This document shows positions 48,732 to 54,175 of a DNA stretch of 64,000 nt, piece after piece. Position 1 is the stretch's first letter. Every line of letters starts with the position of its first letter. The translations under genes were made by a program, and so were the position numbers. Under the pieces are notes generated by a model. The model was given only the letters and a program-made list of their open reading frames with translations. It searched no databases and was not told where the DNA came from. The DNA is from Hyphomonadaceae bacterium (GTDB taxonomy: Bacteria; Pseudomonadota; Alphaproteobacteria; Caulobacterales; Hyphomonadaceae), in NCBI GenBank assembly GCA_022844475.1, contig JALHLR010000022.1, positions 1 to 64,000 of the forward strand, read 5' to 3'.

Positions 48732-50996
48732 ATGGACAACGTCAAGTCCAGGGCTGGCGCGAAACCGGCCCGTCCCGCACGCGGCGCGATAGGCCTGGCC
48801 GCGCTCGCCGCGAGCCTTGCGCCTGCAGCGCTCGCCCAGCAGCCGACAGGCACGACACCCGCGCCCGATGCGCTCGTCGCACAGGATGCGAAACCTGCTT
48901 CGGCCGAGGGCGTGCAGACCTTCGACGCCGCCTTTTTCCGTCAGTACAACCCGGTCACCGCGGTGGACATCGTCAACCGCGTCCCGGGCTTCGAGATCGA
49001 TGATGGCGAAGTGCTGCGCGGCTTCGGCGCCACCGCCGGAAACGTACTGGTCAATGGCGAGCGTCCGTCCTCGAAAGTGCTCATCTCGGAACAGCTCAAG
49101 CGCATCCCCGCCGAGTCGGTGATCCGCGTCGAGCTGATCTCGGGATCCGCCTCCAATGTCGATGTCCGGGGGCAGACGCAGCTGGTCAACGTGGTGGTTC
49201 GCCAGGCCAAGCAGGGCGGCTCGCCCCTCAACTGGGTGCTCGACGCGCGCGACATCCAGTATTCCGAGCGTGTCGGCTGGAACGTACAGCTGACCAAGAG
49301 TTTTGCCTTGGGCCCTGACGCGGATCTCACGCTCGACTTCCAGCTGCCGAACCTGCGCGGCCGTACAGAGAGCTTCGAGAGCGTCCGCAATCCCGCAGGC
49401 ACGCTGCTGCTTTACCGCGAGCAGTTCGGTCAACCGAACCAGATCGGCGTGCAAGGATCCGGCGTCCTCAAATGGCGGATGAGCCCGCAGGACACGCTGA
49501 GCTTCAACGCGCAGGCTGCGCCGACCTGGAACACGCTGAATATCGGCTCCATCGACTTCACGCCTGCAGGCAATTTCTCGCGCGGCACGTTCGGCCTCAG
49601 CGAATTCTCGAACAACTACACCGCCGAGGTAGGCGGCGACTGGGAGCACCGCTTCTCCCCCGAACTGTCGGTCAAGGGCATCGGGCTCGCCACCTTCACG
49701 AATGTTGATCAGGATGACGTCTTCCGCATTTTCACGCCGACCGGCCCAGGCCTGGGTGGCCTCGCCAACACGCAGACGATCACCCGCACGACGGAGGCGG
49801 GCGAGCGCGTTGGCCGCGGCTTCGTGACGTGGCGCCCGACCGGCGACCATACTATCGATTTCGGCGTCGAAGGCGCGTTCAACTTCCGTGAGACGACGCT
49901 CGACATCTTCAACAACACGGGCGCGGGGCCTGTCTCCCAATTCCTGCCGGTTTCCGATACGCGCGTGGAAGAAACGCGTGTCGAGCCCTTCATCACCGAC
50001 GTCTGGAAGATATCGCCGCAGCTGACGCTTGAATCGGGCTTCATCTACGAAGTCTCGCAGATCAAGCAGTCCGGCGACGAGGTGAAGGAACGCGAATTCT
50101 CCTATCCCAAGCCACGCGCCACGCTGACATGGCAGGCAGCTGATTCCGACCAGGTCCGCGCGTCCATCGTGCGCGAAGTCGCACAGCTCGATTTCGTGGA
50201 GTTCGCCTCCGCCATCAACGTCGTCGACGCCTTCAGCGTGATCGGTAACCCGGACCTCGAACCCGAGAAGACGTGGAAGGCGCGCGCCGAATGGGAACAC
50301 AAGTTCGGCCCGCGCGGCGCCCTGACGCTGGTCGTCTTCCACGACCAGGTCGAGGACGTACAGGACTTCATTCCCCGTACGATCTGCGTGCCCGCAACTC
50401 CCGGCGCGTCGATTCCCGCGCCTTGCCCCACGACATCGCTCCGCACTTTTGACGCCCCCGGAAACATCGGCGACGGCACGCGTACAGGCATCGAGGTTCG
50501 CGGCGCCATGCCCCTTGCGCCGCTGCTCCCCAATGCCGAAATTCGCTTCTCGGGCCTCTGGCAGGAAACAGACGTCACCGATCCCGTGACCGGCGAGAAC
50601 CGCCGGTTCTCTGCCGAGAAGGATTGGAACTACAACGTCTCATTCCGCCACGACCTGCCTGAGCACAAATTCGCCTGGGGCGCCTCCACGCTGGGCCAGT
50701 CGGACCGGCGGGAGTTCAGGGTTGTGGAGGATATCCTCTTCGATCGTCCGGGCGCGCGCTTTGATCTCTTCGTCGAAAGCCCCGCCTGGATTCCCGGCGT
50801 GACGGTCCGCCTGTCCGCCTCGAACATCTTCCACCCGGAGGAAACCCGCACGCGGACATTCTACCAAGTCGATCCGCTCGACGCCGTCGCGCCGCCGCGT
50901 TCCACAGGCAATGTTCGCCAGATCGAGGAACGCAAGCAGAAGGGCGGTCCTGAAGGAACGCAGGTCTTCTCGGTCCGGATGTCGGGAACTTTCTAA
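48732..50996 (+). CDS. TonB-dependent receptor, short-plug type
   Basis: A 754-residue outer-membrane protein with a signal peptide (cleavage ALAQ, about residue 36). The plug contains FFRQYNPVTAVDIVNRVPGFEIDDGEVLRGFGATAGNVLVNGERPSSK and IRVELISGSASNVDVRGQTQLVNVV. The barrel ends VFSVRMSGTF with a C-terminal Phe. The sequence differs from receptor 1 and resembles the TonB-dependent proteins with short plugs common in sphingomonads and Caulobacterales. GGGGAGGG lies 7 bp before the ATG. Ligand unknown; likely controlled by the divergent HxlR regulator. Confidence 0.88.
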   Translation: MDNVKSRAGAKPARPARGAIGLAALAASLAPAALAQQPTGTTPAPDALVAQDAKPASAEGVQTFDAAFFRQYNPVTAVDIVNRVPGFEIDDGEVLRGFGATAGNVLVNGERPSSKVLISEQLKRIPAESVIRVELISGSASNVDVRGQTQLVNVVVRQAKQGGSPLNWVLDARDIQYSERVGWNVQLTKSFALGPDADLTLDFQLPNLRGRTESFESVRNPAGTLLLYREQFGQPNQIGVQGSGVLKWRMSPQDTLSFNAQAAPTWNTLNIGSIDFTPAGNFSRGTFGLSEFSNNYTAEVGGDWEHRFSPELSVKGIGLATFTNVDQDDVFRIFTPTGPGLGGLANTQTITRTTEAGERVGRGFVTWRPTGDHTIDFGVEGAFNFRETTLDIFNNTGAGPVSQFLPVSDTRVEETRVEPFITDVWKISPQLTLESGFIYEVSQIKQSGDEVKEREFSYPKPRATLTWQAADSDQVRASIVREVAQLDFVEFASAINVVDAFSVIGNPDLEPEKTWKARAEWEHKFGPRGALTLVVFHDQVEDVQDFIPRTICVPATPGASIPAPCPTTSLRTFDAPGNIGDGTRTGIEVRGAMPLAPLLPNAEIRFSGLWQETDVTDPVTGENRRFSAEKDWNYNVSFRHDLPEHKFAWGASTLGQSDRREFRVVEDILFDRPGARFDLFVESPAWIPGVTVRLSASNIFHPEETRTRTFYQVDPLDAVAPPRSTGNVRQIEERKQKGGPEGTQVFSVRMSGTF

Positions 50997-51037
50997 ACCG
51001 CCAACGCATCGTGCGGCCTGAAAACTTTGCAGGCGGC

Positions 51038-51064
51038 TGTCGGAGCCGGTAGTCATGGGCCGTC
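51038..51064 (+). promoter_or_regulatory. ECF42-type sigma promoter 1
   Basis: TGTCGG (51038-51043), 17-bp spacer, CGTC (51061-51064), followed by CTAGG, 23 bp before the YCII gene start. The ECF42 target reported in Streptomyces is, as I recall, TGTCGA plus CGA/TC. A second copy with the same spacing is at 52810-52836. Confidence 0.75.
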
Positions 51065-51087
51065 CTAGGCTCATGAGAGACGCCCCG

Positions 51088-51504
51088 ATGATGTACGCCG
51101 TGCTTTGCTACAACAATGAAGAGATGGTCTGCGGCTGGACCAAGGAGCAGGACGACGCCGTCATGGCGCAGCTCTCCCACGTCCATGACAAGTGGGAGAA
51201 GGCCGGCAAGCTGAAGCCGTCCATCCGCCTGCTGCCGACCTCTGCCGCGACGACGCTGCACAAGCAGAAGGACATGATCTTCGACGGTCCCTATGCCGAA
51301 ACGAAAGAGGCGCTTCTCGGCTTCTACATCATCGATGTCGCCGGGCTCGAGGAAGGCCTGGACTTCGCCCGCGAACTCGCCGTGGCCAATCCCGGCGGCG
51401 CCTACGAGCTTCGCCCGATCCAGCTTTACCTGCCGGGAGCGCCCATCGACGGCGCCTACGCCACGACACGCGAGTATGCCGGCGACAAGGCCGCCGCAAA
51501 ATGA
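51088..51504 (+). CDS. YCII-related (DGPF) protein
   Basis: A 138-residue protein of the YCII/DGPF family: MMYAVLCYNNEE at the start and the motif FDGPYAETKEALLGFYIIDV, the hallmark pattern paired with ECF42 sigma factors. Two consecutive ATGs (51088, 51091) and an upstream ATG at 51073 are possible starts. Its stop overlaps the sigma-factor start (ATGA). Function is unknown; DGPF proteins are the conserved neighbours and presumed targets or modulators of these sigma factors. Confidence 0.87.
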   Translation: MMYAVLCYNNEEMVCGWTKEQDDAVMAQLSHVHDKWEKAGKLKPSIRLLPTSAATTLHKQKDMIFDGPYAETKEALLGFYIIDVAGLEEGLDFARELAVANPGGAYELRPIQLYLPGAPIDGAYATTREYAGDKAAAK

Positions 51505-52760
51505 CTGATCAGGCCTGGATCGAGGCGACGCTGACGTCGTCCCGGCCCCAGGCCGTGGCGGCGCTCCTGCGCTACTTCCGCAATCTCGATGACGCAGAAG
51601 AGGCCTATCAGGAATCCTGCCTGCGAGCCCTGCGCAACTGGACCGCAAAAGGCCCGCCGCGCGATCCCGTCGCCTGGCTGATCATGGTCGGCCGCAACGC
51701 AACACTCGACCAGAAGCGCAAGACACAACGTCTGGTCGCCATGCCTGACGAGACGCAGGTCTCCGATCTCGAGGATGTCGAAACGCCGATGGTGGAACGC
51801 CTCGACGACAGCCAGTATCGCGACGACGTGCTGCGTCTGTTGTTCGTCTGCTGTCATCCGGACCTGCCTGCCACGCAGCAGATCCCGCTCGCTCTACGCA
51901 TCGTCTCAGGCCTCAGCGTAAAGCAGATCGCGCGCGCCTTTCTCGTCGGCGAAGCGGCGATGGAACAGCGCATCACCCGTGCCAAGGCGAAGGTCGCCGA
52001 AGCCGGCGTGCCGTTCGAGACCCCGGGGCCGGTTGAGCGCAGCGAACGTCTCGCCGTCGTGATGCAGATGATCTACCTCGTCTTCAACGAGGGCTACTCC
52101 GCGGGTCCGAAGGACGACGCCCGCGCAGACCTTGCAGAAGAAGCCGTCCGCCTCGGGCGCCTGCTGCTCCGCATGTTCCAGGCCGAGCCAGAGGCGATGG
52201 GCCTTCTCGCATTGATGCTGTTGCAGCACGCTCGCCAGCCTGCGCGCTTCGACGCAAATGGCGACGCTGTGCTGATGGAGGATCAGGATCGCACGCTATG
52301 GCGGCCCAAACTGATTCAGGAAGGCCTCGCCCTGATCGACAAGGCAATGCGCCACCAGCGCACCGGCGTTTATCGCGTGCAGGCCGCCATCGCCGCCCTG
52401 CACGCCCGCGCGCAGCGCTTTGCGGAGACGGACTGGAGCGGCATAGACGCACTCTATGCCACGCTCGAACGGATGCAGCCATCGCCCGTCGTCACGCTCA
52501 ACCGCGCGGTTGCGGTGTCCAAGACGAAGGGCCCGCAGGCAGCCCTCGACATGATCGAACCTCTGGCTGAGCGCCTCGCCAGCTACTTCCACTATCACGG
52601 CGCGAAGGGCGGCCTGCTGCTGATGCTCGACCGCAAGCGCGAAGCGCGCGAGTGCTTCGACCGCGCCATCGCGCTCGCCAACACGGCCGCGGAAGCTGCC
52701 CACATCCGCATGCATCTCGACCGCCTGATCGCCGAGAGCGAGAAGTCTGCCCGCGCCTGA
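51501..52760 (+). CDS. ECF42-group RNA polymerase sigma factor with C-terminal helical extension
   Basis: A 419-residue sigma-70 family protein. Region 2 spans LRYFRNLDDAEEAYQESCLRAL to NATLDQKRK. Region 4 has ALRIVSGLSVKQIARAFLVGEAAMEQRITRAKAKV. The remaining 230 residues (from about QMIYLVFNEGYSAG) form a helical/TPR-like extension, the feature that sets ECF42 apart from short ECFs. No anti-sigma factor is adjacent; the extension probably controls activity. It overlaps the YCII gene and is likely autoregulated from promoter 1. Confidence 0.9.
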   Translation: MTDQAWIEATLTSSRPQAVAALLRYFRNLDDAEEAYQESCLRALRNWTAKGPPRDPVAWLIMVGRNATLDQKRKTQRLVAMPDETQVSDLEDVETPMVERLDDSQYRDDVLRLLFVCCHPDLPATQQIPLALRIVSGLSVKQIARAFLVGEAAMEQRITRAKAKVAEAGVPFETPGPVERSERLAVVMQMIYLVFNEGYSAGPKDDARADLAEEAVRLGRLLLRMFQAEPEAMGLLALMLLQHARQPARFDANGDAVLMEDQDRTLWRPKLIQEGLALIDKAMRHQRTGVYRVQAAIAALHARAQRFAETDWSGIDALYATLERMQPSPVVTLNRAVAVSKTKGPQAALDMIEPLAERLASYFHYHGAKGGLLLMLDRKREARECFDRAIALANTAAEAAHIRMHLDRLIAESEKSARA

Positions 52761-52809
52761 CCAACTGCTTCATCACCCGAGCAAAAACTGCCGCGAAAAT
52801 TCCGCGCCA

Positions 52810-52836
52810 TGTCGGGACCCGCTCGCGTCGGACGTC
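52810..52836 (+). promoter_or_regulatory. ECF42-type sigma promoter 2
   Basis: TGTCGG (52810-52815), 17-bp spacer, CGTC (52833-52836), followed by CTCGG, 45 bp before the SRPBCC gene. It is the same motif and spacing as promoter 1, including the CGTCCT context. Confidence 0.75.
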
Positions 52837-52880
52837 CTCGGGATATGAAGATTGACACAGAAACAGAGAAGAGAAGTCCC

Positions 52881-53348
52881 ATGACCGCTCCGCAACACGA
52901 ACTCGTCCTCGAACTCATCCTCGATGCGCCGAAGGAGAAACTCTATCGCGGCTGGACTGAGCCCGAGCTGATGAAGCAGTGGTTCGCGCCCGCGCCGTGG
53001 ACGACGCCGCACGCCGAGAACGATCTCCGCCCGGGCGGGGCCAGCCTCATCGTCATGCGCTCGCCGCAGGGCCAGGAGTTTCCCAACCGGGGTCAGTATC
53101 TCGAAGTCGTCCCCAACAGGAAGCTCGTCTTCACCGACGCCTTCGTCGGCAACTGGGTCCCGAAAGAGGGCGCGCCGTTCTTCGCCTGCGAACTCACCTT
53201 CGAGGACGCCGGCCCGGGCAAGACGAAATACACCGCGCGCGCCCGTCACTGGACGGCGGAAGCCATGGCCCAGCACGAGCAGATGGGCTTCATCCCGGGC
53301 TGGACGATCTGCGCCAAACAGCTCGAGGTAGTCGCGCAGCAGCTCTGA
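52881..53348 (+). CDS. SRPBCC/AHSA1-domain protein
   Basis: A 155-residue START-like protein: LVLELILDAPKEKLYRGWTEPELMKQWFAP, then GGASLIVMRSPQGQEFPNRGQYLEV and the C-terminal helix HWTAEAMAQHEQMGFIPGWTICAKQLE. Such proteins bind small hydrophobic ligands and are frequent members of ECF42/DGPF regulons. The ATG at 52881 follows AGAGAAGAGAAG. It is driven by the second sigma-dependent promoter. Confidence 0.9.
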   Translation: MTAPQHELVLELILDAPKEKLYRGWTEPELMKQWFAPAPWTTPHAENDLRPGGASLIVMRSPQGQEFPNRGQYLEVVPNRKLVFTDAFVGNWVPKEGAPFFACELTFEDAGPGKTKYTARARHWTAEAMAQHEQMGFIPGWTICAKQLEVVAQQL

Positions 53349-53386: not shown

Positions 53387-54175
53387 ATGCGCTTCATCAC
53401 GATCTTCAAGAGCGATCCCAACAGTAACGCGCCACGGCCCAGCGATCAGGAAATGGCGCTGCACCGCGAGGAAATGGGCCGCGAGATCGAGAAGGCGATC
53501 GCCGCAGGAACAATGGTATCCAACGGCGGCATCGGCCTGCGCGAGACGACCGGCGGCCGCATCCACAACAAGGGCGGCAAGATCACGGTCGAGGCGCCGC
53601 CCAGGGGAGATGGCGGCTGGATGGCGGCGGCCGGCTTCGGCATCGTCAACGCGGACTCGCGTGAGGCTGTGATCGAAACGCTGTCGCAACAGATCCTAAA
53701 GATGGGCGAGGGCGCCGTCGAGTTCATCCACTACAACCAGTTCTATCCCGCGCCAGAAGCAAGCTTCGCCCCGCCCACTTCAGCCAGCTATCCGGCGGGC
53801 GTCATCCCGTATCTCTCGTTCGACAACGCGACAGACGTCATCGCCTTCTACATCAAGGCGTTCGGCGCGAAGGAGATCGCGCGCATGTACGGCGAGGATG
53901 GCAAGCGGATCATGCATTGCCAGCTCGAGATCAATGGCGGTGGCCTGATGCTGTCCGACAATTTCGTCGAGTATGGCCTGCCGCCGACACAGCGATCGCG
54001 CAGCTATGTGATGCAGCTGGTCGTTCCAGATGGCGACATCTGGTGGGATCGCGCCGTCAAGGCGGGCTGCCGCGAGACCATGCCCTTTGCGGTTGCGCCG
54101 TGGGGCGATAGATATGGGCAAATGCTCGATCCGTTCGGCGTGACCTGGTCGGTCAGCTGCCCGGCGAAACGATAG
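53387..54175 (+). CDS. YCII-like and glyoxalase (VOC/PhnB-like) fusion protein
   Basis: A 262-residue two-domain protein. Residues 1-120 are YCII/DGPF-like (MRFITIFKSDPNSNAPRPSDQEMALHREEMG; AAGFGIVNADSREAVIETL). Residues 135-258 are a vicinal-oxygen-chelate fold of the PhnB/3-demethylubiquinone type (VIPYLSFDNATDVIAFYIKAFGAKEIARM; HCQLEINGGGLMLSDNF; YGQMLDPFGVTWSV). GGAGA lies 6 bp before ATG 53387. It follows the SRPBCC gene by 38 bp, in the same sigma-controlled unit. Enzyme activity not established. Confidence 0.87.
   Translation: MRFITIFKSDPNSNAPRPSDQEMALHREEMGREIEKAIAAGTMVSNGGIGLRETTGGRIHNKGGKITVEAPPRGDGGWMAAAGFGIVNADSREAVIETLSQQILKMGEGAVEFIHYNQFYPAPEASFAPPTSASYPAGVIPYLSFDNATDVIAFYIKAFGAKEIARMYGEDGKRIMHCQLEINGGGLMLSDNFVEYGLPPTQRSRSYVMQLVVPDGDIWWDRAVKAGCRETMPFAVAPWGDRYGQMLDPFGVTWSVSCPAKR

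What the first reader, a model, noticed from the sequence alone, without database searches (positions are those of the whole stretch)
51038..52836. Two copies of TGTCGG-N17-CGTC define a sigma regulon in an ECF42 island
TGTCGG (51038) and TGTCGG (52810) are each followed after exactly 17 bp by CGTCCT. One stands before the YCII-sigma operon, the other before the SRPBCC-YCII/VOC operon. The sigma factor encoded between them has the long C-terminal extension of group ECF42, and its neighbours are DGPF-type proteins. I recall the published Streptomyces ECF42 motif as TGTCGA with CGA/TC, so the match extends the motif to alphaproteobacteria with a Gly-rich variant. The spacing identity is direct observation; use by this sigma factor is inference.
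Basis: partly seen in the sequence, partly recalled or inferred. Interest (0 to 1): 0.75.

Follow-up and report, generated by a model that had tools for sequence, protein, structure and literature searches.

The report
Promoter pair of an ECF42 sigma
A stress-type sigma factor and two small gene clusters beside it carry the same promoter signal, a kind of switch already described in the nitrogen-fixing bacterium Sinorhizobium meliloti; comparing relatives also points to one amino acid that probably sets the last letter of that signal.

Summary
TGTCGG-N17-CGTCCT occurs at 51038 and 52810, before the YCII-sigma operon and the SRPBCC-VOC operon. In the window alone it is barely beyond chance. Relatives make it firm: in 65 related loci the 17-bp spacer gives 63 sense hits against 1 antisense; other spacers give 0-5 sense. 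A matrix trained outside the genus picks 7 of 33 genome-wide TGTCGR-N17-CGTC sites; six precede YCII, SRPBCC, VOC, YceI or DUF1905/OmdA genes, one, doubtful, an ABC ATPase. The claimed novelty fails: S. meliloti RpoE10 (ECF42) is published with three promoter motifs, each TGTCGG-N17-CGTC, in the same gene order (PMC6180224). So this is a new member of a known kind. A side result may be newer: the last -35 base follows residue 155 of the sigma4 recognition helix (Glu 80 G of 81 called; Ala 22 A of 29; Arg 3 C of 3, one event; Gln one T, one G). By inference this is the helix slot that reads that base pair in the SigW-DNA crystal (PMC6713349). Independent contrasts are few, and phylogeny is not excluded.

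The parts
51038..51066 (+). P1: -35 TGTCGG (51038-51043), 17 bp, -10 CGTCCT (51061-51066); transcript start expected near 51073 by analogy with S. meliloti SMc01149
   Evidence: matrix score 21.4
51088..51504 (+). YCII/DGPF-type protein, 138 aa
   Evidence: Pfam PF03795 E 2.4e-14; PDB relative PA1349, 1s7i
51501..52760 (+). ECF42-type sigma factor, 419 aa, sigma2 + sigma4 + C-terminal extension (DUF6596, 183-283)
   Evidence: the only PF20239 match found in the assembly
51963..51965 (+). codon of Glu155 in the sigma4 recognition helix (AMEQRITRAK), proposed reader of the last -35 base
   Evidence: slot inferred from PMC6713349
52810..52838 (+). P2: -35 TGTCGG (52810-52815), 17 bp, -10 CGTCCT (52833-52838); transcript start expected near 52845 by the same analogy
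   Evidence: matrix score 29.9, highest of the 33 genome sites
52881..53348 (+). SRPBCC/AHSA1 protein, 155 aa
   Evidence: Pfam PF08327 E 8.6e-32
53387..54175 (+). 262 aa protein, C-terminal VOC/glyoxalase domain (149-255); N-terminal half without a Pfam match above cut-off

Best explanation
P1 and P2 are promoters of the ECF42 sigma factor encoded between them. The sigma binds RNA polymerase, reads TGTCGG at -35 through sigma4 and CGTC at -10 through sigma2 at a fixed 17-bp spacing, and switches on a small regulon of YCII, SRPBCC, VOC, YceI and DUF1905-type proteins. P2 is very probably a direct target. P1 would also give autoactivation, but that step is less certain. No anti-sigma gene was seen among the neighbours scanned; activity is probably set by the C-terminal extension, perhaps through the YCII protein. 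Shown here: sites, spacing, conservation, gene families. Inferred: transcription and sigma dependence. Input signal: unknown.
For: Spacer 17 gives 63 sense hits in 44 of 65 loci against 1 antisense; spacers 12-16 and 18-22 give 0-5 sense. Two of the genome's three YCII genes have the site 50 and 52 bp before their ATG; the third, beside a gene that looks gpsA-like by eye, has no spacer-17 site. A matrix from 35 sites outside the genus scores 7 of 33 genome sites at 19.5 or more, the next at 13.0. In 15 genomes of the genus the site with CGTCCTNNR occurs 55 times against 6 for the reversed control. Of 30 of these hits fetched as loci, 23 precede YCII, VOC-type, DoxX, RibD_C, AHSA1, DUF1428 or YceI genes. 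In S. meliloti, RpoE10 overexpression raised SMc01149-SMc01148 and SMb20475-SMb20474, both behind TGTCGG-N17-CGTC (PMC6180224); a S. meliloti record shows the order YciI-sigma-SRPBCC with both sites.
Against: No transcript data for this organism. In S. meliloti the YCII-rpoE10 operon did not respond to RpoE10, and its mapped start overlaps the motif. The link between number of sites and presence of the sigma is weak: 4.7 a genome in the 9 genomes with the orthologous sigma against 2.2 in the 6 without (18 of 5005 permutations), but once the sites at the sigma locus itself are left out it is 3.2 against 2.2 (495 of 5005). Four genomes without the orthologous sigma in their drafts (G318, G322, G338, G341) still carry the site before YCII, DoxX, AHSA1 or DUF1428 genes. 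Of 98 Glu155 sigmas 17 have no upstream call: 9 show a one-off variant in a relaxed search and 2 more by eye, 2 are truncated before the site, 1 was not inspected, and 3 (L171, L276, L287) show none.
Confidence: 0.86

Rival explanations
1. The two sites are a chance pair of GC-rich words in a GC-rich genome.
For: Shuffled windows reach two matches in 5 of 100; 26 of the 33 genome-wide TGTCGR-N17-CGTC sites score low, and the reversed control pattern occurs 16 times.
Against: Fixed 17-bp spacing upstream of the homologous operons in many genera, almost only on the sense strand, most often about 415-485 bp before the sigma start.
Confidence: 0.02
2. The sites are real promoters but are used mainly by another ECF sigma with a similar motif, such as ECF41.
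For: ECF41 and ECF42 promoters share CGTC at -10 (RpoE9 and RpoE10 rows of Table 1, PMC6180224); some genomes lacking the orthologous sigma in their drafts keep the site, and distal site numbers depend little on its presence.
Against: The RpoE9 -35 shown there reads TGTCAC, not TGTCGG; the sixth base follows the ECF42 clade.
Confidence: 0.07
3. Only P2 is sigma-dependent; P1 is a relic or weak site, the YCII-sigma operon is expressed by the housekeeping sigma, and there is no autoactivation.
For: S. meliloti SMc01151 was not induced by RpoE10; P1 scores lower than P2 (21.4 v 29.9).
Against: A site upstream of the sigma operon is called in 81 of 98 Glu155-type sigmas (80 TGTCGG, 1 TGTCGC), which argues for selection; no sigma70-like promoter was found in 50900-53000 (simple consensus scan).
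Confidence: 0.3

Closest known systems
Sinorhizobium meliloti RpoE10 (ECF42) regulon, PMC6180224 (passages and section 12 seen)
   Same: Gene order YCII-sigma-SRPBCC-second protein (S. meliloti record); sigma 67-68% identical; motifs TGTCGG-N17-CGTC before both operons and before a distal operon
   Different: The YceI and DUF1905 targets predicted here are not named in the passages seen; there the motif before the YCII gene overlaps its mapped start
Streptomyces venezuelae ECF42 sigmas (Liu 2018; not held; described through PMC8999054 section 15; motif recalled)
   Same: ECF sigma with a C-terminal extension of about 200 residues; YCII-type neighbour
   Different: Recalled motif TGTCGA with CGA/TC; the window belongs to the TGTCGG clade
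Pseudomonas putida ECF-10 (PMC8999054 section 15, PMC6180224 section 12)
   Same: Same group; PMC6180224 calls its genomic context similar to that of RpoE10
   Different: Linked to antibiotic and oxidative stress there; no phenotype known here

Membership tests
ECF42 sigma factors | sigma2 and sigma4 only, as in ECF sigmas | tested here: met
   Sigma70_r2 and Sigma70_r4_2 over cut-off
ECF42 sigma factors | C-terminal extension of about 200 residues with TPR-like repeats | tested here: met
   419 aa with DUF6596 at 183-283. The TPR part is weak: residues 371-400 resemble designed repeat proteins.
ECF42 sigma factors | YCII/DGPF gene next to the sigma gene | tested here: met
   PF03795 gene overlapping the sigma start
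ECF42 sigma factors | no anti-sigma gene nearby | tested here: met
   The five neighbours scanned are YCII, SRPBCC, VOC, TonB receptor and HxlR; other nearby ORFs were listed only, not scanned
ECF42 sigma factors | target promoters of the TGTCGN-N17-CGWC kind before the sigma operon and accessory operons | tested here: met
   sixth base G instead of the A recalled for Streptomyces
ECF42 sigma factors | group assignment by the published ECF group models | not testable with these tools
   I know of no such models in the libraries offered
ECF42 sigma factors | transcription from these promoters depends on the sigma | not testable with these tools
   Reported for two operons in S. meliloti

The most novel reading that the evidence does not exclude
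In ECF42 sigmas one residue of the sigma4 recognition helix (155 in the window protein) sets the last base of the -35 element by contact with the template strand: Glu reads C (TGTCGG), Arg reads G (TGTCGC, at both promoters of the locus in Roseibium/Labrenzia), Gln reads A in one Mesorhizobium (TGTCGT), Ala goes with TGTCGA or TGTCGT. Sigma and both local promoters were re-coded together in a lineage nested inside the Glu clade.
Probability: 0.6. Interest if true: 0.5.

Novelty: new member of a known kind. Interest (0 to 1): 0.35.

Why it matters
It settles a proposed new regulon as a known one and adds predicted distal members. The comparison also yields a cheap test of how ECF sigmas and their promoters change specificity together in nature: one residue and one base, with natural swaps already present in sequenced plasmids.

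Tried and rejected
Chance pairing was rejected. 'First alphaproteobacterial case' was rejected. The ABC ATPase site (C27:18506 minus) scores high, but its spacer TTTGATATTC is conserved also in G341 and, varied, in G318, where no orthologous sigma was found, so I count it as doubtful. Residue 155 is not singled out by statistics: column 126 ties with it (109 of 120 leave-one-out each). The case for 155 rests on the crystal-structure slot and on the swaps; 104 and 155 are the only sigma4-region columns at which L216 and L261 both depart from all Glu/TGTCGG rows. Exceptions: L296 has Glu155 with TGTCGC; L188 has Gln155 with TGTCGG; three Glu-type loci (L007, L232, L243) have a TGTCGA site downstream. 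Independent tree contrasts: 3 concordant, 0 discordant, which cannot reach 0.05. That tree left out columns 150-162, used the quick method with a simple model and warns of long branches. Structure prediction could not be run.

Full report
WHAT IS THERE. The two sites are exact. TGTCGG at 51038 and 52810 is followed after 17 bp by CGTCCT. P1 precedes a YCII protein (51088-51504) whose stop overlaps the start of a 419-aa sigma factor (51501-52760). P2 precedes an AHSA1/SRPBCC gene (52881-53348) and a 262-aa protein with a C-terminal VOC domain (53387-54175). The sigma carries Sigma70_r2, Sigma70_r4_2 and DUF6596 and is the only PF20239 protein found in the assembly.

CHANCE OR NOT. In the window alone two matches are not rare: mean 0.39 in shuffles, two reached in 5 of 100. 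I therefore turned to relatives. With spacer 17 there are 63 sense hits in 44 loci and 1 antisense hit; with spacers 12-16 and 18-22 there are 0-5 sense and 0-12 antisense hits each. The 21 loci without a hit are, but for L009, the more distant ones (28-41% identity). In a second set of 44 loci (30, 12 plasmid records, 2), which holds mostly distant sigmas, the contrast is weaker: 18 sense and 5 antisense hits at spacer 17, 0-7 sense at 14-16 and 18-20.

THE REGULON IN THIS GENOME. TGTCGR-N17-CGTC occurs 33 times in the 3.17-Mb assembly (78% complete); the reversed control pattern occurs 16 times. I fetched the surroundings of every hit not in the window and scored all 33 with a matrix from 35 TGTCGG sites outside the genus. 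Seven score 19.5-29.9; the next scores 13.0. They are: P2; C4:67011 before a VOC-type protein (PF06983, start codon TTG); C31:16608 (minus) before a YCII protein; P1; C27:18506 (minus) before an ABC ATPase; C2:29472 before a YceI protein; C41:11331 before a DUF1905/OmdA protein. The starts I chose lie 50-111 bp after TGTCGG. Of the genome's three YCII genes two have the site; the third, a YciI beside a gene that looks gpsA-like by eye, has no spacer-17 site.

THE GENUS. In 15 genomes TGTCGG-N17-CGTCCTNNR gives 55 hits against 6 for the reversed control. The 9 genomes with a sigma at least 77% identical have 4-6 each (mean 4.7); the 6 without have 0-5 (mean 2.2; 18 of 5005 permutations as extreme). 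This overstates the link, because the sigma's own promoters are among the hits: without the sites at the sigma locus the means are 3.2 and 2.2 (495 of 5005). I read the downstream gene for the 30 hits fetched as loci, of 55: 10 YCII, 4 VOC-type, 3 RibD_C, 3 DoxX, 1 AHSA1, 1 DUF1428, 1 YceI, 4 ABC ATPase, 1 POR, 1 without a family, 1 without a gene by my rule (window YCII, YceI and one ABC ATPase of the type; the other three YCII-sigma copies and the ABC copies were assigned by likeness, not scanned). Against a clean story: G318, G322, G341 and G338 lack the orthologous sigma in their drafts yet keep the site before such genes. Missing contigs are the simplest reason; this was not tested.

CONTEXT. 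In L004 (same contig as G314 of the genus) the upstream receptor gene (75% identity) and the downstream nadD-type gene (71%) flank YCII-sigma as in the window, and no SRPBCC or VOC-fusion homologue was found in that locus. So the YCII-sigma pair does not look like a recent island in this genus; the P2 operon is the variable part.

PRIOR ART. Lang et al. 2018 (PMC6180224; passages and section 12 seen) describe S. meliloti RpoE10 as ECF42. Table 1 lists SMc01151 (YCII), SMc01149 and SMb20475; in all three I read TGTCGG, 17 bp, CGTC. For the last two the motif stands upstream of mapped starts; for SMc01151 it overlaps the start found by 5'-RACE. Overexpression raised SMc01149-SMc01148 and SMb20475-SMb20474 but not SMc01151. 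A S. meliloti record shows YciI-sigma-SRPBCC-second protein, with both sites. The claim of a first alphaproteobacterial case is therefore wrong, and the window is another member. The Streptomyces motif TGTCGA is recalled; that paper (Liu 2018) is not held.

MECHANISM. A review (PMC8999054, section 15) says the ECF42 extension is essential for activity and proposes control by protein contact, with the YCII protein as a suspected partner. I adopt that as inference. The starts expected at 51073 and 52845 follow the lower-case base of the SMc01149 row, which I take to be the mapped start.

A CODE IN THE -35 ELEMENT. In a tree of 66 sigmas (the 65 plus the window) the 28 TGTCGG rows form one supported set together with L009, whose site reads CGTCGG; the 17 TGTCGA rows lie outside it. 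Residue 155 was Glu in 28 of 28 and Ala or Gly in 17 of 17. I widened the set to 188 loci plus the window, 185 distinct proteins. The base after TGTCG upstream of the sigma operon (TGTCA variants counted as no call) was: Glu 80 G, 1 C, 17 without a call; Ala 22 A, 6 T, 1 C, 26 without; Arg 3 C; Gln 1 G, 1 T; Gly 4 A, 1 T, 10 without; Ser 10 without; Phe 1 and Thr 1 without. Sites downstream of the sigma gene: Glu 53 G and 3 A, Arg 3 C, Ala 5 A. The three Arg rows are near-identical Roseibium/Labrenzia plasmids, so one event, but both promoters of the locus carry TGTCGC, and the rows sit inside the Glu clade. The Mesorhizobium Gln row (L261, TGTCGT, before VOC-YCII-sigma) sits in the Glu clade; the other Gln row, L188 (TGTCGG), sits among Ala/TGTCGA rows. 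An alignment to a solved ECF sigma (6in7) puts residue 155 at the first Arg of TVRSRIFR. In SigW the residue two after T168, K170, contacts the template G opposite position -31 of GAAAC (PMC6713349, section 11); by the spacing of the named residues 155 is the same slot, though SigW itself was not aligned there. The sixth base of TGTCGN corresponds to -31 if the G at -35 is matched. Glu-C, Arg-G and Gln-A are ordinary recognition pairs (general knowledge).

LIMITS OF THE CODE. Column 126 predicts the base as well as column 155 (109 of 120 each). Only three independent contrasts exist (3 concordant, 0 discordant, p at best 0.25). L296 (Glu, TGTCGC) and L188 (Gln, TGTCGG) do not fit a strict code, and Ala goes with A or T. 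Many rows are close kin, so the counts are not independent. A general residue-base code for ECF sigmas was published (Todor 2020; not held; known to me from recall and from a passage in PMC8103513), so the principle is known; whether this position in ECF42 is covered I could not check. I saw no mention of a TGTCGG/TGTCGA split in the passages I read; the searches were made, and most papers they list were not opened.

VERDICT. Observation confirmed; regulon reading supported by comparison; novelty claim not. New member of a known kind, interest 0.35, with one side result worth a bench test.

Noticed in passing
51963-51965; L216, L227, L259, L261, L188, L296: Sigma4 residue 155 and the last -35 base change together (Glu-G, Ala-A, Arg-C, Gln-T), with exceptions L296 and L188.
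   Followed up: partly
L104, L118, L131, L117, L130, L114, L127, L111, L124: Genus genomes without the orthologous sigma in their drafts still carry TGTCGG-N17-CGTCCT before YCII, DoxX, AHSA1, DUF1428 or ABC genes.
   Followed up: partly
L033, L104, L105, L110, L127: The site before an ABC ATPase has a conserved spacer TTTGATATTC across several genomes of the genus, also where the orthologous sigma was not found; it may be another element.
   Followed up: no
L086, L091-L093, L098, L099; L095-L097, L101; L278, L279: Distant ECF42 sigmas with Ser (Phe in L099) at 155 have TGTCAG and those with Gly have TGTCAA at about the same place and spacing; two AT-rich loci with Ala read TGTATA there (by eye).
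   Followed up: no
L192, L194, L204, L207, L213: An Ala155 subgroup has TGTCGT with CGAC at -10 upstream of the sigma operon.
   Followed up: no
hits H35-H60: Plasmids, mostly enterobacterial, share a partial match to the sigma (about a third of it, residues 229-373 or 239-373), which looks like a truncated gene.
   Followed up: no
L009: A contig labelled Myxococcales sits among alphaproteobacterial sigmas (67% identity to the window); mis-binning or transfer.
   Followed up: no
L004:6242-7090: In a close relative the sigma gene is followed directly by the nadD-type gene; no SRPBCC-VOC operon like the window's was found between them.
   Followed up: partly
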